From: Bradyrhizobium roseum
Lineage (GTDB): Bacteria > Pseudomonadota > Alphaproteobacteria > Rhizobiales > Xanthobacteraceae
DNA: 64,000 nucleotides
Reading direction: 5' to 3'
NCBI RefSeq assembly: GCF_030413175.1
Contig: NZ_CP129212.1
Span: 2,914,001 to 2,978,000 of the forward strand
Shown here in pieces: positions 22,468 through 33,205 of the stretch (positions are counted from its first letter, which is position 1; each line of letters opens with the position of its first letter). A model generated the notes under the pieces. That model ran no database searches. It was given only the letters and a program-made list of their open reading frames with translations, and had not been told where the DNA came from. The position numbers and the translations under genes are program-made.

Positions 22468-23421
22468 ATGCCCGAGAAGGTCCTGGTCTATTCGCGTTTC
22501 CCGAAGGCCCAGCTGGAACGTTTTGGCGAGCGGTTCGAAATCCTGAACGCCGCCGGCAAGCCGCCCAACGACGTCTTTTCCGCCGAACAGCTTGCGGATG
22601 TGCGCGCGATGATCGCAGCCGGCGGCAGGTCGCTTGGCGGCGAGATGATGGACCTGCTGCCGAAACTCGGCGCGATCGTCTGTTACGGCACCGGCTATGA
22701 TGGCGTCGACCTGGCGGCTGCGGCAACACGCAACATCGCTGTCGGCCACAGTCCGGGGGCGAATGCGGCTTCCGTTGCCGACATTGCGGTGACCCTGATG
22801 CTGGCGGCGACGCGGCGGCTGCTTCCGGCCGACGATTACGTTCGGAGCGGCAGCTGGGCCGCCGCAAAGCCCTCGCCGATGATGCGCACCCCGGCGGGCA
22901 TGCTGGGCCGCAAGATCGGCGTCTACGGCATGGGCGAGATCGGTCGCAAGATCGCGGCGCGCGTCGCGGCGTTCGAGACCGAGGTCGGCTATTTCAGCCG
23001 CAGCCGGCACGACGTTCCCTATCGCTATTTTCCGACGCTCGGTGCGCTCGCTGAATGGTGCAGCGTCCTGATGGTGGCGGTGCGCGCGGGAGACGATACC
23101 AACCACGCCGTCGACGCCGATATCTTGAACAGGCTCGGCAAGGACGGCTACGTCGTCAACATTTCGCGCGGCTCGGTGATCGACCAGCAGGCGCTGGTCA
23201 AGGCGCTGACCGACCAGACCATCGCCGGCGCCGGCCTCGACGTGTTCGCGAAGGAGCCGCAGGCGCCCGACGCGCTGACCGCGCTGCCCAACGTCGTCCT
23301 GTCGCCGCACATCGGCGGCCATACGTTGGAATCGCACGTCGCGATGCAGGACTGCGTGATCGCCAATCTCGACGCGTTCTTTGCCGGCAAGAAGCTGCCT
23401 TACGCGGTGCCGCTCGGCTGA
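22468..23421 (+). CDS. D-2-hydroxyacid dehydrogenase, NAD(P)-binding
   Basis: The 317-residue enzyme has a Rossmann domain with GMGEIG (residues 154-159) and the three catalytic residues of the D-isomer family: Arg234 in NISRGSVIDQ, Glu263 in AKEPQAPDA, and His281 in SPHIGGHT. Members reduce 2-keto acids such as glyoxylate, hydroxypyruvate or other oxo-acids to D-hydroxy acids. The residue after beta-2 (YFSRSRHD) suggests NADP. GAAAGAAGAA lies before ATG 22468. It is the first gene of the accessory stretch between rplA and rplJ. The exact substrate is not known. Confidence 0.88.
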   Translation: MPEKVLVYSRFPKAQLERFGERFEILNAAGKPPNDVFSAEQLADVRAMIAAGGRSLGGEMMDLLPKLGAIVCYGTGYDGVDLAAAATRNIAVGHSPGANAASVADIAVTLMLAATRRLLPADDYVRSGSWAAAKPSPMMRTPAGMLGRKIGVYGMGEIGRKIAARVAAFETEVGYFSRSRHDVPYRYFPTLGALAEWCSVLMVAVRAGDDTNHAVDADILNRLGKDGYVVNISRGSVIDQQALVKALTDQTIAGAGLDVFAKEPQAPDALTALPNVVLSPHIGGHTLESHVAMQDCVIANLDAFFAGKKLPYAVPLG

Positions 23422-23809
23422 TCCGCGCCGCGGCCCTTCAGCGGTTTACTGCAGCCCCCGACACAAATCGCTAAACAAGGGATGGCTTGACGTGCTGGAT
23501 CGCGGGCGGGCCGCACGGCTTGCCGACTTGCCGGTTCATTTGATCGACAAGCGAAACACGGCAGATCCAGCTGTTGCAAGTCCGACAAAGTCGCACACGG
23601 TCCATATCCGTTTTTATCGGCGGGCGACCCTCCGAACGGTTAACCGCCTAGCCCAACAGGCTTTTCCAGATTGGCACACGAGTTGCTGAGATGTTGGCGG
23701 GCGACCCTGACGGTGGCCTGATGGGCGTTTCTGCGAACCAACTTGCCGTGGCGTTATTCGCCGCAACTTCGAGAAACAGCCACAGGCCGCGTCAACACAG
23801 GAGGATGCG
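23422..23809 (+). other. Intergenic region with a 13-bp direct repeat
   Basis: A 388-base gap before the ferredoxin-ferritin fusion gene. GGCGGGCGACCCT occurs at 23619-23631 and again at 23696-23708. No gene or terminator is visible; a promoter for the next gene is expected here, but no clear hexamers stand out. Confidence 0.4.
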
Positions 23810-24730
23810 ATGAGTAACGTTACATTTTCTTCGCCCGTCATGGCGCGGGACATCACCGTCTATGCGATAGCCGGCGACCGCGGCACCATTCTGGCTGTTG
23901 CCAAGGCTCACAAGATTCCCATTCCGTTCGACTGCCAGGACGGCGAATGCGGCTCCTGCCTTGTCGAGGTCAAGCATCTGGCCTCCGGAAACCGCAAGCA
24001 CGGCATCGCACTGACCGAAAAAGAAAAGGAAATGCTGCGCCAGCTTGGCAAGATCACGAAGGAGGAAATCGTCGCGGCCGAGGTCAACGACATGCCGCCG
24101 CGTTATCGACTCGCATGCCAGTGCTTCGTACGAAACGAAGACATCATCGTGTCTTTCGAAGGTGACAAGACGCTGCCGGCGCAGGCGCCCTATCTCACGC
24201 CCGCCGCCAAGATCTACAAGGGCGGCGTGCAAATTGCTTCGCTGGAAGAATTCCACGGCTTTGCCGTCAAGGTCGAGGAGGACGCCGCGCTGCATTTCGA
24301 TAAACTGTCGAAGTCGATGGAAGCCTGCGGGAATCACGAGGTGGCGAAGCTGTTCGAGCAGCTGGCGGGCTTCTCACGGCTCCATCTCGCCGAAGCCCGA
24401 AAGCGCGCCGCGTCGACCGACATCGCAAAATTCATTCCGCCCGACTACGCATGGCCCGACCATGAGACGCCCGAGCGCACGGCCTTGTGGGCTGGCGATC
24501 CGTCGCTCTCCCGTCTGGATGCGCTGCGGGCGGCACTGGTCGGCGAGCGGCGCGGATATGAATTCTATTATTCGATCGCCGGCACCACCCGGGATCAGGA
24601 CATTCGCGCGGCGGCCAAGGAATTTTTCCAGGAAGAAGCAGAGCATGTGCAGGTGCTCGAGGCCTGGATCACACGCGAGGAGTGGCTGCAGAAGAACCCG
24701 CTGCCGACAGGCGAGGCTTCCATCTCCTGA
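23810..24730 (+). CDS. [2Fe-2S] ferredoxin fused to a ferritin-like (rubrerythrin-type) domain
   Basis: This 306-residue protein joins two redox modules. Residues ~14-118 are a plant-type ferredoxin domain with Cys42-x4-Cys47-x2-Cys50 and a fourth ligand at Cys103 or Cys105. Residues ~145-290 are a four-helix ferritin-like domain: Glu156/Glu157 in helix 1, His192 in helix 2, Glu246/Glu251 in helix 3, and Glu276-x2-His279 in helix 4. Helix 2 shows Ser189-x2-His192 where rubrerythrins usually have Glu-x2-His, so the site may be altered. A role in peroxide or oxygen reduction or iron handling, with the ferredoxin as the built-in electron donor, is inferred. The next gene is a free-standing paralogue of the second domain. 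Confidence 0.8.
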   Translation: MSNVTFSSPVMARDITVYAIAGDRGTILAVAKAHKIPIPFDCQDGECGSCLVEVKHLASGNRKHGIALTEKEKEMLRQLGKITKEEIVAAEVNDMPPRYRLACQCFVRNEDIIVSFEGDKTLPAQAPYLTPAAKIYKGGVQIASLEEFHGFAVKVEEDAALHFDKLSKSMEACGNHEVAKLFEQLAGFSRLHLAEARKRAASTDIAKFIPPDYAWPDHETPERTALWAGDPSLSRLDALRAALVGERRGYEFYYSIAGTTRDQDIRAAAKEFFQEEAEHVQVLEAWITREEWLQKNPLPTGEASIS

Positions 24731-24765
24731 AACCGCGACATGTCATCGTAAAGGGGAGCCGGTCC

Positions 24766-25269
24766 ATGAATTCCGTCGAGGAGTTTCTCGCCTACGCCAT
24801 CAAACTGGAGGAAGAGGCGATGTTGCGCTTCGACCAGCTCGCTGACGCCATGCAGAGCTACGGCAACAAGGACGTTGGCTCGCTGTTCCGGCGATTGTCG
24901 GACTATTCGCGGATGCATCTGGGCGACGCCCGTGCACGGGCCGGGTTTCGCAACATTCCCGTGATGCTTCCCGACGCCTACAAGTGGCCGGATCTTGAAA
25001 GCCCGGAAACCGCCGCGATCTGGGCGGCCGATCCGTTTCTGGCCAAGAACGAAGCGCTCGAGGTCGCGCTCGCCAGCGAAACCGCCGGATACGAGTTTTA
25101 CAAATCGGTTCACGACGGCACCGATGATCCCGAGATCCGGGTGCTGGCAGCAGAGTTCTTCGCCGAAGAGGCCGAGCACGTGGCCTGGATCAATCAATGG
25201 ATCGAGGAGGAGCGCACCAACGGTGGCCCGACTGAGGCGACGCTGCGCGGGATCGTCATGTCGAACTAA
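24766..25269 (+). CDS. Ferritin-like (rubrerythrin-type) protein
   Basis: This 167-residue four-helix protein aligns along its whole length with the C-terminal domain of the preceding fusion. The pairs are KLEEEAMLRFDQLADAM with KVEEDAALHFDKLSKSM, and TAGYEFYKSVHDG with RRGYEFYYSIAG. Candidate metal ligands are Glu15-17, His51, Glu105, Glu110 and Glu135-x2-His138; position 48 is Ser where a Glu is usual. It has no rubredoxin or ferredoxin part of its own and may work with the upstream ferredoxin fusion. ATG 24766 has GGGGAG upstream and lies 35 bases after the fusion stop, so the two are one operon. Confidence 0.8.
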   Translation: MNSVEEFLAYAIKLEEEAMLRFDQLADAMQSYGNKDVGSLFRRLSDYSRMHLGDARARAGFRNIPVMLPDAYKWPDLESPETAAIWAADPFLAKNEALEVALASETAGYEFYKSVHDGTDDPEIRVLAAEFFAEEAEHVAWINQWIEEERTNGGPTEATLRGIVMSN

Positions 25270-25379
25270 GGGCTGCTTCCAGGCGAGATCGCGGACTCAA
25301 AATCGCGAAAACAACCCCATGCAAAGTAGAAAAATGCCGGGGAACTCAAGCCGGATCCAACCCTCGCTCGGAAAGCGGT

Positions 25380-25664
25380 TCAGGTACCAGGCTTCAGATC
25401 AAGCGCTGCCTTGAGGTCATCGAGCGTGACGTCCGGAATTGATCGATGAACTCTTGCAATTCTTGGGGTCTCACCCGCTCTCAAGATCGCGATGACGGTT
25501 TCCACATCGGGACATCCCGGCTCTCGACAGCTCAACTCGCTGACCGAGACGGTCACGTCATCCGACAGGCCCAAAAGCCTCCGCGCTTGCAGCTTCAATT
25601 GCTGGACTGCCTGAAAATAACCGGCCTTTTGGATCCGGCCCAAAGGTTGAGCGATCTTTGGCAT
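25380..25664 (-). CDS. Small protein with CxxxGCPxxET motif
   Basis: The 94-residue protein is cytoplasmic and carries SELSCREPGCPDVETVIAILRAG, a Cys-x4-Cys pattern with Gly before the second Cys and a conserved Glu-Thr. Such small proteins are uncharacterised as far as I know; similar ones occur next to COG0523 GTPases in Alphaproteobacteria (recollection, not searched). It lies 91 bases downstream of the first COG0523 gene on the same strand, so it is probably the last gene of the metal cluster. A metal-carrying or metal-client role is inferred. The ribosome site before ATG 25664 is weak, so the start is uncertain. Confidence 0.55.
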   Translation of the reverse strand: MPKIAQPLGRIQKAGYFQAVQQLKLQARRLLGLSDDVTVSVSELSCREPGCPDVETVIAILRAGETPRIARVHRSIPDVTLDDLKAALDLKPGT

Positions 25665-25755
25665 GCGTTTGGCGTCCGAATGGATCTGAGATGGCTGGCG
25701 GCACGACGTGGCAACGGATCAACTCCGGTGATCCGATGCCTGCCGGTTCCTGCAA

Positions 25756-26736
25756 TCAGTGACTTGGAGCCTGACACTGCTCAAAGCCTGCCTTCAAGAC
25801 ATCGTGCGGCAAGTCGCGCCCAATAAAGACCAGACGGCTCGTTCTCGGCTCGTCGGACCTCCATGGTCGTTGATGGTCTCCTTCGAGCAACATGTGGACG
25901 CCCTGGATCACGAAGCGATCGGGATCGTCCTGGAATTGGATGATTCCCTTCAACCGCAAAATATCGGTTCCGAACTGGCGAACGATCTCCTGCATCCAGG
26001 GAAAGAACTTCTCGGGAATGAGCGGCGTATTCGTCGTCAATGAAAGGCTGTTGACGTGGCTATCGTGCTCATGGTCGTGAGCTTCCGTCAGAAAGCCGGG
26101 CTCGAACTCAAGGACCCTGTTGAGATCGAACGCGTTCCGATCCAGGACTTTTTCGAGATCGAGCGCGCAGCGCTCGGTGCGATGGATCGTTGCATAGGGA
26201 TTGATTGAGCGAATCCGTGCTTCGACGCGCTTGAGGTCCGCCTCCGATGCCAGATCGGTCTTGTTGAGCAGGACGACGTCGGCGAATGCGATCTGCTCCT
26301 GCGCTTCGTGGGCCTGGTCGATCTCTCCGAGCAGGTGCTTTGCGTCGATGACCGTGACGATGGCATCCAGCTTCGTGTTGCGGCGGACATCATCATCAAC
26401 GAGAAAGGTTTGCGCCACGGGGGCCGGATCGGCAAGCCCGGTGGTCTCCACGATGATTCCGTCGAACTTGCCGCGACGCTTCATGAGCCCTTCCAGAATC
26501 CTGATGAGGTCGCCTCTCACGGTGCAGCAAATGCACCCGTTGTTCATCTCGAAGATTTCTTCGTCCGCATTGACGATCAGATCGTTGTCGATGCCAACCT
26601 CGCCGAATTCATTGACGATGACCGCGTAGCGCTTGCCGTGTGTTTCCGTCAGGATCCGGTTCAGCAACGTGGTCTTTCCCGCACCGAGATATCCGGTGAG
26701 GACGGTAACGGGCGTTTGAGCGATGACGCTGGTCAT
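25756..26736 (-). CDS. COG0523 metal-chaperone GTPase (CobW/YjiA type)
   Basis: This 326-residue G3E-family P-loop GTPase has Walker A GYLGAGKT (residues 15-22), the metal-binding Cys68-Ile-Cys70-Cys71, a LLNKTD guanine-specificity motif, and a His-rich segment AHDHEHDSH near residue 220. A C-terminal CobW_C domain follows ([27 protein letters not shown]). Proteins of this family insert metals, notably zinc, into client enzymes; the subfamily near Zur sites works in zinc shortage. It begins 12 bases after the second COG0523 gene, so they form one operon whose upstream region carries a Zur-box-like palindrome. Confidence 0.88.
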
Positions 26737-26748
26737 ACTTTGTCCTTT

Positions 26749-27975
26749 TCAGCGCTTGTGGTTCGTTGGGTTCTGAATGGCAGGGGTTGATTGGAATTGC
26801 GCGGTGGCATGGTCGTGCAACGTGAGCAGGAGCCCTGCGACAAGCGCCGCGCCGAGAAGGCTGAGGCCTGCGATAGTCAGCACCAATTGCGCCTTTGCGC
26901 GCAGGGAAATGCCGGTTATCGCCGCGAACAGATTCCTGACGACCGCTTCGTCAAGTCCGTGAGCGATGACGACCATTCGTGTGCGACGATCGTCCGAGGG
27001 CCAGGCCTGAAGCCGGTACTGGTGGATCGCATGCTGAACGCCGTGCACGACGAGCGGCCGCTCCGGATCGTCCTCAAGTCCGACAAGGCCCTTGAGACGG
27101 AGCAATTGCGGACCGCCCACGACCTTCAGAAGGTCAATGAAGGTGGCGAGATTTCGCTCCGATACCGGCCGGCTTTCGAGCAACGCCAGGCTCTGGATGC
27201 CGGTCGCCGCATGGCGGCTTTTGCCTGAAGCATTGTTGTGCGTCTGCCCTTGTTGGGCCAGCGCCTGCTCCAGGGCCAACCACCCCTCAACATCGGCCCC
27301 TTGCTCGGAGGGAACGTAGCGGCGCGGCGCAAAGAGCGATCCGAGATCGAAGTTGGTCCCGTGACGATCCACGATCGCTGCGGCCGCGTTGATCTGTTGG
27401 ATCTTCGGCAGCAGGCCGGAGAGATCGGCCGCCGCGGCGGCTCCTGCGGCAATATCCGTCTTGGTCAGCACCACAATATCCGCAAACGCCACCTGCTTCA
27501 TGCATTCGAAGTGCCGCTCCATGGTCTCTTCGATGGTGCTCACGTCGATGGCGCAGACGACGCCGGACAGTCGAAAGCATCTTGCCACGACATGATCCCG
27601 AAATCCGACAGCGGGAAGCCCGCCTGGCGTGATCTGGTTGATGATGGGGGCCGGATCGGCAAGGCCCGTCGTCTCGACAATCACACGCTTGAACGGCGGG
27701 ACCGCGCGATCCTCCAGAGCGTCGTAAAGTTCGTACAGGGAGGATCTGATGTCGCTGCCAGCTGTGCAGCAGAGGCATCCCGTGGTGGTCACCATCAGTT
27801 CGCGCTTGTTCACGCGAACCAGGTCGTGATCGATGGAGATGTCGCCAAACTCGTTGATGATGACCGCGGTGTCCGCGAAATCCTCGCTCGCCAGAAGCTC
27901 GTTGAGCAGCGTGGATTTCCCCGCGCCCAGGAAGCCCGTGAGGATCGTCACAGGAATAGGCTGGTCTATCTTCAT
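26749..27975 (-). CDS. COG0523 GTPase with C-terminal membrane helix
   Basis: This 408-residue protein has the G3E GTPase core (Walker A GFLGAGKS, Cys67-Leu-Cys69-Cys70, LTKTD) and a CobW_C domain (RLKGLVGLEDDPERPLVVHGVQH). After it comes an added tail with a hydrophobic helix, LVLTIAGLSLLGAALVAGLLL, followed by a polar HDHATAQFQ end. COG0523 proteins are normally soluble, so this one may be tethered to the inner membrane. The first gene of the GTPase operon, it lies 24 bases downstream of the palindrome at 27999-28018. The upstream PepSY and TonB-receptor genes suggest a role at the site of metal entry. The metal is inferred to be zinc. Confidence 0.85.
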   Translation of the reverse strand: MKIDQPIPVTILTGFLGAGKSTLLNELLASEDFADTAVIINEFGDISIDHDLVRVNKRELMVTTTGCLCCTAGSDIRSSLYELYDALEDRAVPPFKRVIVETTGLADPAPIINQITPGGLPAVGFRDHVVARCFRLSGVVCAIDVSTIEETMERHFECMKQVAFADIVVLTKTDIAAGAAAAADLSGLLPKIQQINAAAAIVDRHGTNFDLGSLFAPRRYVPSEQGADVEGWLALEQALAQQGQTHNNASGKSRHAATGIQSLALLESRPVSERNLATFIDLLKVVGGPQLLRLKGLVGLEDDPERPLVVHGVQHAIHQYRLQAWPSDDRRTRMVVIAHGLDEAVVRNLFAAITGISLRAKAQLVLTIAGLSLLGAALVAGLLLTLHDHATAQFQSTPAIQNPTNHKR

Positions 27976-27998
27976 CGTTCGCCCAAATCGCGCTGATA

Positions 27999-28018
27999 CG
28001 TAATGTTATAACGTAACG
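27999..28018. promoter_or_regulatory. Zur-box-like palindrome upstream of the COG0523 operon
   Basis: A near palindrome centred on GTTA|TAAC; 8 of 10 base pairs are symmetric. It shares the TAATGTTATAAC core with the perfect box at 31987-32006 and lies 24 bases upstream of the COG0523 start, where repressor binding would block transcription. Confidence 0.7.
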
Positions 28019-28102
28019 TTTTCGCGCGCAATGGCCTTGGGAGCTCCATCACGATGGTTTGTGGTCGCCGCCTTGCTCGGGCAGGTGGCCAATCCAGTAC
28101 GG

Positions 28103-29551
28103 TCAACGAAATGCGAGTCTTAGCCGCCGCCAGGCGATCACGATTCCGGTGATGCTGAACGCAACCCCGAACCCGCAAAGAAGAACAATGACCGCCGTTC
28201 GTAAGCTTGGGCGCGCCATCAAGGCGGGAAGATCGAACGTGTGCAGCGCGCGGTACAGCCAGCGATAGGTTCGACGCTGCGCGTCAAGCTTTTCCAGATT
28301 GGCGCCGTTCGCCCCGTCGATCTGGTACCACACGTCCCCGCAGATGGAGCGATATACGGGCGCGGACGCAATTTCGGATGCAGTGAGGTATTTGTCATCT
28401 CGCGCGACAACCTCGGTGCTTGAGCAGCCGCCGACGGCGCGGGAGATGACGGCGTTGACCTGATCGGCTTGCAAGAACGACGAAAAAGGAGCGGCAGGTC
28501 CTGGAACGACGACCGAAAGCTGCTGCGCATCAACGCCCGTTCGACGACGTTGAAAGATGCGACCGCCGAAAGCGAACCACTCGATCTCGCGGGCGGCCGG
28601 CGAAACGGCTTCGGATGCCCTCGACGTCAATTCGCCCCATGCCGGCATGCCGGCGATCCGGTCTGCCTCGGACCTCGTGAGCGCACCGGTGGAGAAGAGG
28701 CGGCCATGGTCCATCGATAGCCAGCCGCTGACAATCCAGGTTGTGACGAATGCTGCGCACGCCAATCCAAACCAGTGATGCCAGGCATGCCATTTTCGAA
28801 AAGGAGACACGATTCGGCCCCGCATGCGCCTGAAGCGAAGCAGGCCTACGATCAGACCGGACAATGCCACGATGACAGCGGCGAGGGACAACCACCAGAC
28901 CGCAACGTGCCAGGCCATCCAGTTCTTGCGCAGCGCGGTTGGGTAAATCCAATGCGCGACGCTTCCAACGTAGTTCCATGCGCGCTCACGGTACGTCGTG
29001 TCTCTCGCGACCTCGCCGGTGCGTGAAGAGACATACAGCTCCGTACCGGCATGATCGTTCAGAGCGATGCGATAGAGAGGTCGATGCCGGTCGAGGCCGT
29101 TCGGGACCGTCCATTGATCATGATCCGCCAGATCCACAAGGGAAACCGCGGCAGGATTCAGGCCGCGCAAGCGCGCATGCTCGGTCGCGATGGCGAGTGC
29201 CACCTGGTCGGTGCCAATATCGGCCGCGCGCAAATCGTCAGCATGCAGCGCCTTTGTCCCGGACGCAGCCGACACCAGGTACACGGGACCGTCGCTGCGC
29301 TGCCACAGACGTACCCGCGTGACGCCCTTGAGCATGCTCGCCGCGACAGCTTCGGCCGGACTGTGCCTCACCTTGGAAACGTCGATGATCGGCAATCCTT
29401 CGAAGCGCTCGGCTTCGGTAAGTGCCGGAAACGGCACAAAGTGCATCACGATGCCGGATGCAAACCACATCGCGAACAAGAGGCAGACCGGAATACTCAG
29501 CCAGCGATGGACCAGAATCAGGGCACGCAACAGGCGCGGACCTCTTCTCAA
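28103..29551 (-). CDS. PepSY-domain membrane protein
   Basis: This 482-residue protein has four membrane segments: near the N-terminus (ALILVHRWLSIPVCLLFAMWFASGIVMHF), two in the middle (VWWLSLAAVIVALSGLIVGLL and WFGLACAAFVTTWIVSG), and one at the C-terminus (AVIVLLCGFGVAFSITGIVIAW). PepSY-associated regions lie between. Related proteins near TonB receptors are thought to reduce or process imported metal-chelate complexes in the periplasm. The start is taken as TTG 29551, overlapping the receptor stop by TTGA, so the gene is translationally coupled to the receptor. It is the second gene of the receptor operon. Confidence 0.78.
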   Translation of the reverse strand: MRRGPRLLRALILVHRWLSIPVCLLFAMWFASGIVMHFVPFPALTEAERFEGLPIIDVSKVRHSPAEAVAASMLKGVTRVRLWQRSDGPVYLVSAASGTKALHADDLRAADIGTDQVALAIATEHARLRGLNPAAVSLVDLADHDQWTVPNGLDRHRPLYRIALNDHAGTELYVSSRTGEVARDTTYRERAWNYVGSVAHWIYPTALRKNWMAWHVAVWWLSLAAVIVALSGLIVGLLRFRRMRGRIVSPFRKWHAWHHWFGLACAAFVTTWIVSGWLSMDHGRLFSTGALTRSEADRIAGMPAWGELTSRASEAVSPAAREIEWFAFGGRIFQRRRTGVDAQQLSVVVPGPAAPFSSFLQADQVNAVISRAVGGCSSTEVVARDDKYLTASEIASAPVYRSICGDVWYQIDGANGANLEKLDAQRRTYRWLYRALHTFDLPALMARPSLRTAVIVLLCGFGVAFSITGIVIAWRRLRLAFR

Positions 29552-31947
29552 AACTTGAATGAAGCCTCCAGCTCGTAGGTCCGCGGCGCGCCGAGGAAAA
29601 CCTGATCTGGATAGAAGGGGTCGCCCCATGCCGCATATTTGGTATCAGTGAGGTTACGCACCCGGAAGGCGACGCGCGTGTTGTTGAAGGTCGGGAACGT
29701 CGGTGACTTGGGGATGTCGATGAACGCAAAAGCGTCCACCGTTGTGTAGGCGCGCATGGTGACCGTGTTGGCATCGGTGGTGTAGCGATCGCCGACATGG
29801 CGGACCGATACACCCAGTTCGACCGGGAGCCAGCCGGGGTTGAGAAAACGATACGAGCCTCCGCCGTTCACGACGACCGCGGGTATGTTCGGCGGCGTAT
29901 TGCCGGAGAACGAGCCACCGGCGAAATCATAGTCGGCATAGCGCGTGTGAAGGTAGGTGACGTTGCCCCAGAGCTTGACCTCCGGTATCGGGCGCACCGC
30001 TGCTGCGAATTCAACGCCCTGCGACTTTACCTTGCCGGCGAGGTTGAGGAGTTGCCCGGCTTGTGCCGTGTACACGTTGCTGCGTTCGATATCGAAGGCC
30101 GAGAAAGTCCATTCGGCCTTACCGTTCCACAACAGGTTCTTGATGCCGGTCTCGTAGCTACGGGCGGGCGATAACGAAAGCGGCTGCGTCGGGCTCAGCA
30201 AGAAAATCATGCCGGCCGACACGTCGCTGGCGGTTGCATACTGGCTGTAGAATGTCATTCCCGGAATGGCTTCCCAAGTGTAGCCGATACGACCGGTGAC
30301 TGGCTGAAAGTTTACGGTGTACGGGAACCCGACCTTGCTCACACCCGCGACGTTTGTCGAAGTTCTTTCGAGCGAAAAAGGGTTGAAGCGGAGACCGCCG
30401 ATCAGCGCGAAGGTCGGCGTAATCTTCAGGCGGTCCTCGAGATTGAAAGCCACGCTATCGATGGTCGCGGTCTGTCGTTGCGTCGTCAGCTGGCCGTAGT
30501 ATCCACGGGAGGGATCAACCAGCGGGACCTGATCGCCCGGAAAGTTCGCCGCGCCTGGTCGCGTAAAATCCAGGTGATAGAACTCGAGCGCCGTCACCAG
30601 ACGGTTTTCCATTCCCAGTATATTGGAATTCCACGTGATATCCGTATTACTGCCGACCAGGTTCTGATTGTGGTGGACGAAGAACCGTTCACGGTCGACC
30701 AGATTGCTGGCGGCGTTGAAGGCGCTGACCTCGTTGTTGTACCAGTCCCGGCTGGCATTGTAGTTGTAGACCTGACTTATCAACGTGACGTCGTTGGTCA
30801 GATTCCACTCGAACCCGCCACGCGCCCATGACTCCTTGATGGTCTTGTGGTTGTCGAGCACGTTGTAGTTCGTTTTCAGGGTACGGCCGTCGATGGTGAC
30901 GGCGCCTAGATTGGTGCCGTTGTAATCAGACACTTTTGTTCCGGATACGATGCCCGTGGTCGCAAAAGGGCCGCTGAAAGCGATCGGGACCAGCGGCGTG
31001 CCTTCGTAGACTCGCGCGTTGTAGTCCTTGTATTCGGTCGCGACGAAAACCTTGAACGCCTCCGTCAGGCGATAGTCCAGTTGCCCGGAGAAGTGCAGGT
31101 TCCTCGTGTAGGTGTCGTCGATGAAGCCGTTCTGCTTGGCCCCGCTGATGTCGAACCGATAGTCGAGTCCCCGGATGTTGGTGCTGCCTCCGGAGCCGTA
31201 TCCAGTTCGGATGCTGCCGAGCGAATCGAAGCCGACGAATGCTTCATTCGTGATCGGACCGGCATGGGGCGCCTTGGTGACGTAGTTGACGGCGCCGCCA
31301 ACCGCACCCTGTCCCGACATCAGCGAGGACGGACCCTTGAGGAACTCAACCCGATCGAGATTGAACGTCTCCATGGTCAGCGCGGTGAAGGCCGTGGGGC
31401 CGGTATTGATGCCGTTATAGGTCACGTTGACCTGGCTGCCCTGGAAGCCGCGCATGGCGAACGACACGTCGTTCGGCGCGTCTCCGGCCGTGACGCCTGT
31501 GGCGCCTTTCACCGTATCGATCGTCGTGTGGTAGCCTTGCTCCCGGATCGTGTCCGCACCGACCACTTCGACGGCCGCGGGAGTCTCCCGCGGGGTCAGC
31601 CCCAGGCGGCTCGCGCCGGGCGTCACCACATTGGTGTTGAGCGGCGTCGCCGGCATTTGCTGTTGCCCTTGCGACTGCGGGGACGCTTCGGCCGTGGTCG
31701 AGGGGCGCGGATTTCTGTTGGTCCGGGCGTTGCGGCCTCTTTGCGAATTCGACGGCCTCGTTTGTCCCACCATCGATTGCCGCTGCGGTGCGTCAACGGT
31801 TACCGGGGGCAACGAATTTGCTGACAGGGATGATGACGAAGGCGACTGAGCCTGCGCGTCGACCAAACCAAAACCAAGAACATCTGTCGCTATCAGCAGA
31901 GCTGACAGAGAAACCGAACCCAATTGAAGACGCACGCTGAGCCCCAT
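29548..31947 (-). CDS. TonB-dependent receptor (siderophore/metal type)
   Basis: The 799-residue outer-membrane receptor has a signal segment, a polar Ser/Gln/Pro-rich N-terminal region with LPPVTVDAPQ (possible TonB box), a plug domain (SRLGLTPRETPAAVEVVGADTI, RGFQGSQVNVTYNGI, FLKGPSSLMSGQGAVGGAVN) and a 22-strand-type barrel that ends in FKF. Its ligand is a metal chelate; family alone cannot tell iron from zinc, but the perfect Zur-box-like palindrome 40 bases upstream points to zinc or a zincophore. ATG 31947 has GAGGTGG upstream; a TTG two codons earlier is possible. It is operonic with the PepSY gene. Confidence 0.88.
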   Translation of the reverse strand: MGLSVRLQLGSVSLSALLIATDVLGFGLVDAQAQSPSSSSLSANSLPPVTVDAPQRQSMVGQTRPSNSQRGRNARTNRNPRPSTTAEASPQSQGQQQMPATPLNTNVVTPGASRLGLTPRETPAAVEVVGADTIREQGYHTTIDTVKGATGVTAGDAPNDVSFAMRGFQGSQVNVTYNGINTGPTAFTALTMETFNLDRVEFLKGPSSLMSGQGAVGGAVNYVTKAPHAGPITNEAFVGFDSLGSIRTGYGSGGSTNIRGLDYRFDISGAKQNGFIDDTYTRNLHFSGQLDYRLTEAFKVFVATEYKDYNARVYEGTPLVPIAFSGPFATTGIVSGTKVSDYNGTNLGAVTIDGRTLKTNYNVLDNHKTIKESWARGGFEWNLTNDVTLISQVYNYNASRDWYNNEVSAFNAASNLVDRERFFVHHNQNLVGSNTDITWNSNILGMENRLVTALEFYHLDFTRPGAANFPGDQVPLVDPSRGYYGQLTTQRQTATIDSVAFNLEDRLKITPTFALIGGLRFNPFSLERTSTNVAGVSKVGFPYTVNFQPVTGRIGYTWEAIPGMTFYSQYATASDVSAGMIFLLSPTQPLSLSPARSYETGIKNLLWNGKAEWTFSAFDIERSNVYTAQAGQLLNLAGKVKSQGVEFAAAVRPIPEVKLWGNVTYLHTRYADYDFAGGSFSGNTPPNIPAVVVNGGGSYRFLNPGWLPVELGVSVRHVGDRYTTDANTVTMRAYTTVDAFAFIDIPKSPTFPTFNNTRVAFRVRNLTDTKYAAWGDPFYPDQVFLGAPRTYELEASFKF

Positions 31948-31986
31948 CTGCAAACCACCTCGCGCCCCGCAAGGTTTGTATAGAGA

Positions 31987-32006
31987 TGTAATGTTATAAC
32001 ATTACA
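31987..32006. promoter_or_regulatory. Perfect 20-bp Zur-box-like palindrome
   Basis: TGTAATGTTA is followed directly by its exact reverse complement TAACATTACA. The GTTATAAC core and AATGTTATA half-sites resemble Zur operators. It sits 40 bases upstream of the TonB-receptor start, leftward strand. Confidence 0.75.
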
Positions 32007-32638
32007 CTCGTCAAGCCGAGGGACTGCTGGTGGACCGTCGCTGTGACCTGTCCCGGACACGCGCTCGTGGTGATTGGCCGGCGCGGAGAGGGCGTACAAG
32101 GAAGCCATGGTGGTGAGGCGGTAACGAACCAGTTTTGCGCGAGCGCTGGGCGGGGTAGCCATCTGGTCTGATTTTTGCTCTTGGCAAGCCGGACAAGACT
32201 CGTTAAAGAACCGCCTCCGGGCGTGCTGGCGGTTGCTGGCACGTCCGTGCTCGCATTCCGAAAACCCGATACGGTAGGAGATCATTCCTTTCAGGACATC
32301 CGCATGGATTGCTCGAAAGGAAGGAAGACCCATCGGTTCGGTGGATTGCGGCAGGGGCCCCGGCTTGCCGGACGGCCTCGATCCTGTCCGAGACTGCAGG
32401 CGCTCGCGAAGAAACGCAAGTTTCCTCAACAGCTTAATCTTACAGCCTGCATAGACGGGTGAAGACCGGATTTCGCTTCAACGCCGCTTTGTCGCGGCGC
32501 CATGGCTGATTTGGTTCGAACCTCGACACCCCGCGCCATCTGGTTCGGGAGGGCAGGCTATCAATATCGTCTTGCCCGACGTGTCCTTGGGACTGGTGTC
32601 CAGAGGTCAGGTTTTGGGCGGGGCGATGGGTGTAACCC

Positions 32639-32668
32639 GGCGGTCCCGCTGCTAAAGCGAAGGCCGCC
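32639..32668 (+). promoter_or_regulatory. Hairpin next to the rplJ ribosome site
   Basis: GGCGGTC (32639-32645) pairs with GGCCGCC (32662-32668) with one wobble, and an inner CGCT/AGCG stem lies within. It ends four bases before GGAGAG of rplJ. L10 autoregulation through its leader is known in other bacteria; a match to that RNA was not tested. Confidence 0.35.
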
Positions 32669-32686
32669 AACCGGAGAGAGCTTGCT

Positions 32687-33205
32687 GTGGAAAGAGCGGC
32701 AAAAAAGGACGCGGTTGAAGCGCTGAACGGGGTCTTCAAGACCACCAGCGTCGCAGTCGTCGCCCACTATTCCGGCCTCACCGTGGCCCAGATGCAGAAG
32801 CTGCGCATGCAGATGAAGCAGGCGGGCGCGTCGGTGAAGGTCTCGAAGAACCGTCTCGCCAAAATTGCTCTTGAAGGCACGGATGTCGTTGCCATCGGTT
32901 CCCTGTTGAAGGGGCCGACCGTGATCGCCACGTCGGACGATCCGGTAGCGGCGCCGAAGGTTGCCATCGAATTCGCCAAGGCGAACGAGAAGTTCGTCAT
33001 TCTCGGCGGCTCGATGGGTAAAACCGTCCTGGATGTGAACGGCGTGAAGGCTCTTGCCTCGCTGCCGTCGCTGGACGAGCTGCGCGGCAAGATTGTCGGC
33101 CTCCTGGTGGCGCCGGCGACCAAGATCGCTCAGCTCTCGACTGCGCCCGCGGCCAAGCTCGCGCGCGTCGTCCAGGCCTATGCCTCAAAGAGCGAAGCGG
33201 CCTGA
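32687..33205 (+). CDS. rplJ: 50S ribosomal protein L10
   Basis: The 172-residue protein is L10: [47 protein letters not shown], then [14 protein letters not shown] and [25 protein letters not shown]. It anchors L7/L12 dimers on the stalk. The start is GTG 32687 with GGAGAG eight bases upstream. The usual neighbour rplA is over 10 kb away; rplL follows after 52 bases. A hairpin lies against the ribosome site and may mediate autoregulation. Confidence 0.96.

What the first reader, a model, noticed from the sequence alone, without database searches (positions are those of the whole stretch)
25380..32006. Zinc-type regulon: two Zur-box-like palindromes driving receptor-PepSY and COG0523 units
A perfect 20-bp palindrome lies before the TonB receptor and a near palindrome with the same core before the COG0523 operon; all five genes run leftward. 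This suggests a coordinated zinc-shortage response combining outer-membrane uptake, a PepSY membrane protein and intracellular zinc allocation.
Basis: partly seen in the sequence, partly recalled or inferred. Interest (0 to 1): 0.7.

Follow-up and report, generated by a model that had tools for sequence, protein, structure and literature searches.

The report
Zinc-controlled metal receptor and reductase genes
Five neighbouring bacterial genes, most of them for capturing and handling a metal, carry what looks like the DNA switch of the zinc-shortage response, and most close relatives of two of them are instead switched by vitamin B12 (a cobalt compound), or in one sister genus apparently by both, which raises the testable idea that zinc-starved cells import cobalt as a stand-in.

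Summary
A perfect 20-bp palindrome (31987-32006) lies 39 bp before a TonB receptor and an 8-of-10-pair version (27999-28018) lies 23 bp before two COG0523 GTPases. They are Zur sites by strong indirect evidence: in the 7.3 Mb genome the 20-mer has three sites (control 0), these two and one between a ZnuD-like receptor and ZigA. In ten genomes, leaving out sites of these units themselves, 16 of 17 lie at zinc, zur or receptor loci (control 0).

Of 96 pairs without a Zur box, 95 have a cobalamin riboswitch upstream. The 12 Zur-only pairs lack it and group together. In eight genomes of another genus (g28) a Zur palindrome stands before the riboswitch. The PepSY resembles FoxB in predicted fold and keeps invariant His residues at candidate haem positions, although zinc is not reducible.

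Best reading: a Zur-repressed metal-chelate receptor and reductase, derived from a cobalt/B12 pair, with zinc-type GTPases. Boldest reading: cobalt is imported as a zinc substitute. The first COG0523 carries a conserved C-terminal membrane helix. Metal identity and Zur binding are untested.

The parts
31987..32006 (.). Perfect 20-bp Zur-box palindrome TGTAATGTTATAACATTACA; two overlapping 7-1-7 boxes offset by 5 bp; TTGACG lies just upstream on the minus strand (candidate -35)
29548..31947 (-). TonB-dependent receptor (plug + barrel), siderophore-receptor-like; likely start ATG 31947 (open frame to 31953)
28103..29530 (-). PepSY_TM inner-membrane protein, FoxB-like; likely start TTG 29530 (475 aa; longest open frame to 29629). 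Invariant His 8, 193, 251, 430 and nearly invariant His 252 (475-aa numbering)
27999..28018 (.). Second Zur-box-like site CGTAATGTTATAACGTAACG (8 of 10 pairs), 23 bp before the first COG0523 gene
26749..27975 (-). COG0523 (CobW/G3E) GTPase of 408 aa with CXCC motif and a conserved C-terminal hydrophobic (transmembrane-like) helix
25756..26736 (-). COG0523 GTPase of 326 aa, 63% identical to the COG0523 of the own znuCBA operon
25380..25664 (-). 94-aa ORF of unknown function with SCREPGCPDVETV motif, conserved at the same place in five related loci

Best explanation
Two transcription units repressed by zinc-loaded Zur and released in zinc shortage. Unit 1 makes an outer-membrane TonB receptor for a metal chelate and an inner-membrane FoxB-like PepSY protein that probably passes electrons through two haems to release the metal in the periplasm. 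Unit 2 makes two COG0523 GTPases, one probably membrane-anchored, that allocate scarce metal. The receptor-PepSY pair descends from a pair controlled by the cobalamin riboswitch in cobalt/B12 loci. In this lineage the riboswitch was lost and a Zur box took its place; in genus g28 a Zur box was added to a pair that kept its riboswitch. Step by step: Zur sites, shown in silico (about 0.9); riboswitch ancestry, shown in silico for the sampled relatives (about 0.85); haem-reductase-type PepSY, inferred (about 0.7); chelate import, inferred (about 0.6); metal, open.
For: 20-mer: 3 sites in the own genome and 29 in ten genomes, control 0 in all ten; 28 of 29 lie at zinc, zur or receptor loci, and 16 of 17 when the 12 sites of these units and pairs themselves are left out. 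A Zur-like protein and a boxed znuCBA operon are present. Upstream scan: 20 of 116 usable loci at 0-4 mismatches, 96 at 7 or more, none between. Riboswitch upstream in 95 of 96 non-Zur pairs (31 of 32 tested by covariance model) and in 8 of 8 g28 pairs; absent in 7 of 7 covariance-tested Zur-only loci and, by consensus words, in 12 of 12. The Zur label needs 2 changes on the PepSY tree. Best PDB match FoxB 7ABW. COG0523 no. 2 is closer to the znu-operon member (63%) than to the other four COG0523 proteins compared, its own orthologue aside (31.7-33.1%).
Against: No binding, expression or transport data. The loose 7-1-7 pattern at up to 2 mismatches is not enriched in the own genome (29 against 39 control); specificity appears only with up to 1 mismatch (7 against 3) and the 20-mer (3 against 0). 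The Zur-like protein stays below the NCBIfam Zur cut-off (123.6 against 167). Zinc is not redox active, so a haem reductase sits oddly in a zinc-only system. Sequence search against the PDB found nothing even with a profile; the FoxB match rests on a predicted model, with TM-scores of 0.32 and 0.40 and rmsd 8.3 over 252 residues. The promoter scan found no consensus sigma-70 promoter. In g28 the box also lies between divergent typA and the receptor, so it could serve typA. The receptor tree needs three label changes, because L124 falls apart from the other g28 rows, and in the PepSY tree the branch joining the two Zur-only subgroups has support of only 53. L148, a PepSY relative at 32%, has neither a receptor hit nor a riboswitch.
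Confidence: 0.7

Rival explanations
1. The pair imports a zinc chelate (zincophore) and the PepSY works without redox chemistry, for example as a chelate-binding dissociation factor; its haem ligands are an inheritance.
For: Zur control and co-regulation with zinc-type COG0523; in relative L027 the unit sits with a second zur-like gene, znuABC and an ABC-2 transporter, like the Zur-regulated znuK-znuGHI of Caulobacter (PMC4176598, abstract and one results section read).
Against: His at the candidate haem positions is present in every Zur-clade row with sequence there; one would expect some loss if redox were not used.
Confidence: 0.3
2. The pair imports a corrinoid or B12 itself; zinc shortage raises the need for B12 enzymes and the PepSY reduces cob(III)alamin.
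For: Riboswitch control of relatives and position among cob-like genes, as in the own genome's second pair (cob gene names recalled from sequence).
Against: The receptor matches the siderophore-receptor model (168 bits) far better than the B12-receptor models (67 and 30 bits); no curated cut-off is reached. The own genome appears to make its own corrin (cob-like genes).
Confidence: 0.12
3. It is an ordinary ferric-siderophore receptor and reductase that happens to carry a Zur box (iron-zinc cross-talk).
For: Receptor resembles TIGR01783 and PepSY resembles FoxB; known PepSY_TM partners reduce ferrisiderophores (passages of PMC13038864, PMC13001220).
Against: Most sampled relatives lie under B12 riboswitches; no good Irr ICE match was found upstream of the 65 group-B loci scanned (best 4 mismatches in one, 5-7 in the rest).
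Confidence: 0.12
4. The palindromes bind another Fur-family protein (Mur, Irr) and not Zur.
For: The genome has four Fur-family proteins, and the Zur-like one is below the curated Zur cut-off.
Against: The same 20-mer precedes a zur-like gene and many ZigA-type genes; Zur is the best model match of the Zur-like protein; two of the others pass the Irr cut-offs.
Confidence: 0.05

Closest known systems
Caulobacter crescentus Zur regulon (znuK-znuGHI, znuL, znuM; PMC4176598)
   Same: Zur box GTTA-N5-TAAC before TonB receptors; receptor next to ABC-2 transporter genes, as in relatives of the window locus
   Different: No PepSY in the Zur-repressed set of its Table 1; the PepSY/receptor pair CC2927-28 listed there is assigned to the Fur regulon
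FoxB / HiuB / CrpH PepSY_TM proteins (PMC13038864, PMC13001220; passages read)
   Same: TonB receptor plus PepSY_TM pair; FoxB-like fold; conserved His residues
   Different: Those serve iron siderophores or copper; here the control is Zur or the cobalamin riboswitch
P. aeruginosa Zur-regulated PA2911-PA2914 and PA4063-PA4066, pyochelin-cobalt import and export (PMC11481552, abstract and passages read)
   Same: Zur-controlled TonB receptor for a metal chelate; cobalt relieves zinc need
   Different: ABC permeases instead of a PepSY protein; no riboswitch mentioned in the passages read
B12-riboswitch TonB receptor beside NiCoT/CobW in Novosphingobium (cited in PMC7689651, passages read)
   Same: Predicted cobalt receptor under an adenosylcobalamin riboswitch
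   Different: No PepSY partner and no Zur box mentioned in the passage; that 2021 review says no cobalt-specific outer-membrane receptor is confirmed

Membership tests
Zur regulon | Zur-box motif at the promoter, specific in the genome | tested here: met
   20-mer 3 sites against control 0 in the own genome; 28 of 29 sites in ten genomes (16 of 17 without the units' own sites) at zinc, zur or receptor loci
Zur regulon | A Zur protein is encoded | tested here: inconclusive
   L025 3991-4476: best match is the NCBIfam Zur model, 123.6 bits, below its cut-off of 167; a 47%-identical protein in G181 has a box at its own gene (L220)
Zur regulon | Zinc-dependent Zur binding and derepression in zinc shortage | not testable with these tools
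   needs EMSA and expression data
PepSY_TM reductases of the FoxB type | PepSY_TM domain and FoxB-like fold | tested here: met
PepSY_TM reductases of the FoxB type | Two His ligands on each membrane face | tested here: inconclusive
   H8, H193, H251, H430 invariant in 37 sequences; their sides are inferred from helix order, coordinates not inspected
PepSY_TM reductases of the FoxB type | Haem binding and reductase activity | not testable with these tools
   biochemistry needed
COG0523 zinc-linked GTPases | CobW nucleotide-binding and C-terminal domains, CXCC motif | tested here: met
   both proteins
COG0523 zinc-linked GTPases | NCBIfam ZigA equivalog | tested here: not met
   210 and 97 bits against cut-off 600; neither is filed as ZigA
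TonB-dependent siderophore receptor TIGR01783 | Curated cut-off 223.5 bits | tested here: not met
   168.3 bits; resembles but is not filed as a member
ZnuD zinc-piracy receptor | NCBIfam ZnuD model, cut-off 950 | tested here: not met
   24.5 bits; the own genome's L015 receptor scores 203, also below
Cobalamin-riboswitch receptor-PepSY pairs | RF00174 in the leader | tested here: not met
   none in the window; present before the own genome's second pair

The most novel reading that the evidence does not exclude
Zur here controls a cobalt-chelate importer. Cells short of zinc bring in cobalt as a metal stand-in through a former B12-pathway receptor, the PepSY haem protein reduces Co(III) chelates to release Co(II), and the COG0523 GTPases, one tethered to the membrane, hand it to zinc sites. 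Genus g28, with Zur box and riboswitch together, is a living intermediate in which one receptor-reductase pair is gated by both zinc and B12.
Probability: 0.3. Interest if true: 0.82.

Novelty: new variant of a known kind. Interest (0 to 1): 0.62.

Why it matters
A PepSY_TM reductase under zinc control is unexpected because zinc cannot be reduced. Finding the same receptor-reductase module under cobalamin riboswitches in most sampled relatives, and with Zur boxes in two separate lineages, gives concrete candidates for an outer-membrane cobalt receptor (the 2021 review PMC7689651 says none is confirmed) and makes it testable whether bacteria outside Pseudomonas answer zinc shortage with cobalt. 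It also suggests that metal-uptake parts are re-aimed by swapping the regulator.

Tried and rejected
Loose motif counting: TGTTATNNNATAACA with up to 2 mismatches gives 29 sites against 39 for the reversed control in the own genome, so it was dropped as a genome-wide argument. Sequence search of PepSY against the PDB, single and profile, found nothing up to E 1 and 10. The promoter scan found no consensus promoter. Irr-type ICE motif upstream of group B: no good match. ZigA, ZnuD and siderophore-receptor membership: cut-offs not met. The idea that many COG0523 proteins carry the membrane tail was not borne out: 28 of 28 more distant relatives that were fetched lack it (highest 19-residue hydropathy 1.49 against 2.32-2.59 in the window and five orthologues); these are from the best of the listed matches, not all of them. 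Literature: PepSY with Zur, zinc and TonB-dependent gave 5 papers, 4 listed; two were opened and neither reports a PepSY repressed by Zur in the parts read. Cobalamin riboswitch with TonB and PepSY gave none. PepSY with cobalt, TonB and vitamin B12 gave 3, seen only as a listing. These cover only the held open-access library.

Rows dropped: L036 and L040 have no real sequence upstream of the receptor (the script sliced the wrong region) and L147 and L148 have no receptor hit, so 116 of 120 loci were used; L147 and L148 also gave no riboswitch (L147 is a 3-kb contig). Some named loci and unnamed-genome loci look like the same record (L060/L112 and L068/L149 share contig lengths), so rows are not all independent. 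One search kept the best 80 of 164 relatives; of the 40 matches other than the window's own, 39 were fetched. The trees use 50 and 51 chosen rows.
Full report
1. Observation. The perfect palindrome at 31987-32006 and the near palindrome at 27999-28018 are present as described. GTTATAACATTA with up to 2 mismatches occurs 4 times in the window; 100 shuffles give a mean of 0.27 and at most 2. The receptor's likely ATG (31947) is 39 bp from the palindrome, and the first COG0523 ATG (27975) is 23 bp from the second site. The PepSY frame is open to 29629, but many relatives align only from about residue 32, and the Shine-Dalgarno-like AGAAGAGG before TTG 29530 suggests a 475-aa protein that begins 17 bp past the receptor stop (reading of the sequence; codons checked).

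2. Is it a Zur box? The 20-mer reads as two 7-1-7 Zur boxes overlapping with a 5-bp offset. The same layout occurs in the own genome at TGTTATGTTATAATATAACA (genome 1820932) between a ZnuD-like receptor and a ZigA protein that passes the NCBIfam cut-off (616 against 600); a 7-1-7 site precedes znuC of a znuC-znuB-znuA-COG0523 operon. With TGTAAYGTTATAACRTTACA and up to 3 mismatches the own genome has 3 sites and ten genomes have 29, with 0 control hits in all ten. These ten were chosen because they carry the pair: the own genome, G122 and eight of genus g28. By the neighbouring genes 28 of 29 lie at ZigA-type COG0523 genes, zur, TonB receptors or the window-type loci; one (G122:C1:1696115) was not recognised. 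Twelve of the 29 are sites of the receptor-PepSY pairs and window-type COG0523 units themselves; of the other 17, 16 are recognised. One of these lies just behind a ZigA gene rather than before it (L221), and one (G122:C1:2858113) was assigned only by its place near the second zur-like gene. The 7-1-7 form at up to 1 mismatch precedes znuCBA in G170, G122 and G108 and in G141. In genome G141 that pattern has three places, control 0: znuCBA, a DUF2946 plus ZnuD-like receptor, and the receptor-PepSY pair. The 7-1-7 form with up to 2 mismatches is not enriched in the own genome (29 against 39 control); with up to 1 it is 7 against 3 there, and over the other nine genomes 27 against 2. Four Fur-family proteins are encoded: one Zur-like (best model Zur, below its cut-off), two passing the Irr cut-offs, one Fur/Mur-like.

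3. Relatives of the PepSY. The best 80 of 164 named relatives and 39 regions from genomes of the family, one of them the own genome's second pair (of 198 genomes searched, 40 had a match), were examined. Six named loci (L027-L032) and G122 (L107) carry receptor-PepSY with a box before the receptor (1-2 mismatches, 4 in L029). Four of these seven (L027, L030, L031, L107) run on through both COG0523 genes and the 94-aa ORF with a box before the first COG0523. L028 shows that box and is cut by its contig end. L032 lacks that box: a deletion takes the end of PepSY and the first 155 residues of COG0523 no. 1. L029 has no COG0523 in the 1.5 kb between PepSY and its contig end, but a boxed zur-like gene with a COG0523 lies a few kb upstream. 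In L027 the neighbourhood includes a second zur-like gene with Zur boxes, an ABC-2 transporter divergent from the receptor, a HupE protein and a znuABC set. Four further loci, among them BTAi1 and B. aeschynomenes (L034, L047, L078, L094), have receptor-PepSY without COG0523 and with the same palindrome (one with one mismatch).

4. The riboswitch. Most other relatives have no Zur box and instead a cobalamin riboswitch (RF00174) before the receptor. Among 116 usable loci the best match to the 20-mer within 800 bp upstream is 0-4 mismatches in 20 and 7 or more in 96, with nothing in between; none of 60 resampled sequences reached the observed score for any of the 20. Of the 96, 95 have the riboswitch: 93 by its consensus words and two more by covariance model (L120, L146); the exception is L063, tested. 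By covariance model alone 31 of 32 tested non-Zur loci, 8 of 8 g28 loci and 0 of 7 tested Zur-only loci are positive. The own genome also carries a riboswitch-led pair (L125; receptor 31%, PepSY 37-39% identical) among genes that read as cobO, cobQ and cobU (cob names recalled from sequence, not searched). B. diversitatis and WSM3983 hold both a Zur-type and a riboswitch-type pair.

5. Both switches together. In all eight g28 genomes with a pair (genus unnamed in the tool), a Zur palindrome of 0-3 mismatches lies 95-232 bp before the riboswitch, between divergent typA and the receptor (typA named by resemblance). A CTTG word (GTTG in L137) precedes it in the direction of the receptor, as CTTGAC does before the receptor sites of the window and its seven nearest loci, but not in L034, L047, L078 and L094. 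A Zur-overlapped upstream promoter feeding the riboswitch leader is the simplest reading; control of typA is not excluded.

6. Trees. With 50 chosen rows, the PepSY tree needs 2 changes of the Zur label and the receptor tree 3 (L124's receptor falls apart from the other seven g28 rows). When only labelled rows are counted, the 12 Zur-only rows and the 8 Zur+riboswitch rows each stand on one side of a branch with support 100; with all rows, the branch joining the two Zur-only subgroups has support 100 in the receptor tree but 53 in the PepSY tree (quick trees, SH-aLRT only). In an earlier 51-row PepSY tree with one g28 row (counted there as riboswitch), the label needed one change when L040, L036 and L063 were left uncounted and two in the printed group table. 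So Zur control was probably gained at least twice on an ancestrally riboswitch-led module; direction is inferred from the majority state.

8. The GTPases. COG0523 no. 2 is 63% identical to the znu-operon COG0523. No. 1 ends in a hydrophobic stretch (19-residue hydropathy 2.32) that is conserved in all five orthologues with a complete C-terminus (2.49-2.59; L027, L030, L031, L032, L107) and absent in 28 of 28 fetched more distant relatives (at most 1.49). It looks like a membrane-tethered metallochaperone.

9. Function. PepSY_TM partners of TonB receptors are known for iron and copper (passages). Zinc cannot be reduced but Co(III) can. In P. aeruginosa, Zur-regulated operons move pyochelin-cobalt and cobalt lowers zinc demand (PMC11481552, abstract and passages). 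Putting that beside the riboswitch ancestry, the boldest reading is Zur-controlled cobalt import as a zinc stand-in (about 0.3); a zincophore route is about as likely. The searches in the held library showed no paper that links PepSY to Zur repression or to the cobalamin riboswitch, as far as the listings and passages seen go.

10. Verdict. The regulon claim is well supported in silico and by itself ordinary. The receptor-PepSY pair's shift from B12-riboswitch to Zur control, the double-switch genus and the membrane-tailed COG0523 are what raise the interest.

Noticed in passing
G000:C1:1938000-1956000 (L125), pair at L125 6183-9901: The own genome carries a second receptor-PepSY pair behind a cobalamin riboswitch among cob-like genes.
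   Followed up: yes
window 23810-25269; L221 2000-3429, L225 4271-5700, L231 4325-5754: A ferredoxin-rubrerythrin-like gene and a ferritin-like gene sit beside the zinc genes here; the same pair (69% and 61% identical) lies beside Zur-boxed ZigA genes in three g28 loci of the 18 fetched. Possibly a zinc-linked pair.
   Followed up: partly
window 23421-32687: The ferritin pair and the zinc genes sit between a dehydrogenase gene and rplJ. In 15 of 29 other loci of the genus that dehydrogenase lies within 1.5 kb of rplJ, in one rplA does, in 13 neither, so this may be an insertion beside ribosomal-protein genes.
   Followed up: partly
L027 2970-3938: A penicillin-insensitive murein endopeptidase (PF03411) stands in line with the ABC-2 transporter genes of the zinc cluster; a paper on Zur-dependent endopeptidase regulation in Vibrio was seen as a listing only (PMC6381278).
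   Followed up: no
L032 11289-11296: A deletion runs from the end of PepSY into COG0523 no. 1 in B. retamae, removing the second Zur site.
   Followed up: partly
G000:C1:3214007 (L016 6008): A 7-1-7 box with one mismatch lies before a gene that reads as a putative cyclase/hydrolase; could be a further Zur target or chance.
   Followed up: no
L117 12163: A box CGTTATAGTATAACG lies before what reads as a divergent DUF2946-like gene, about 400 bp upstream of the riboswitch of a receptor-PepSY pair.
   Followed up: partly
G122:C1:4665993 (L233): A further TonB receptor (778 aa) with a Zur palindrome just upstream of its start.
   Followed up: no
window 25380-25664: 94-aa ORF with SCREPGCPDVETV motif, conserved behind the COG0523 pair in five related loci; no Pfam or NCBIfam match.
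   Followed up: partly
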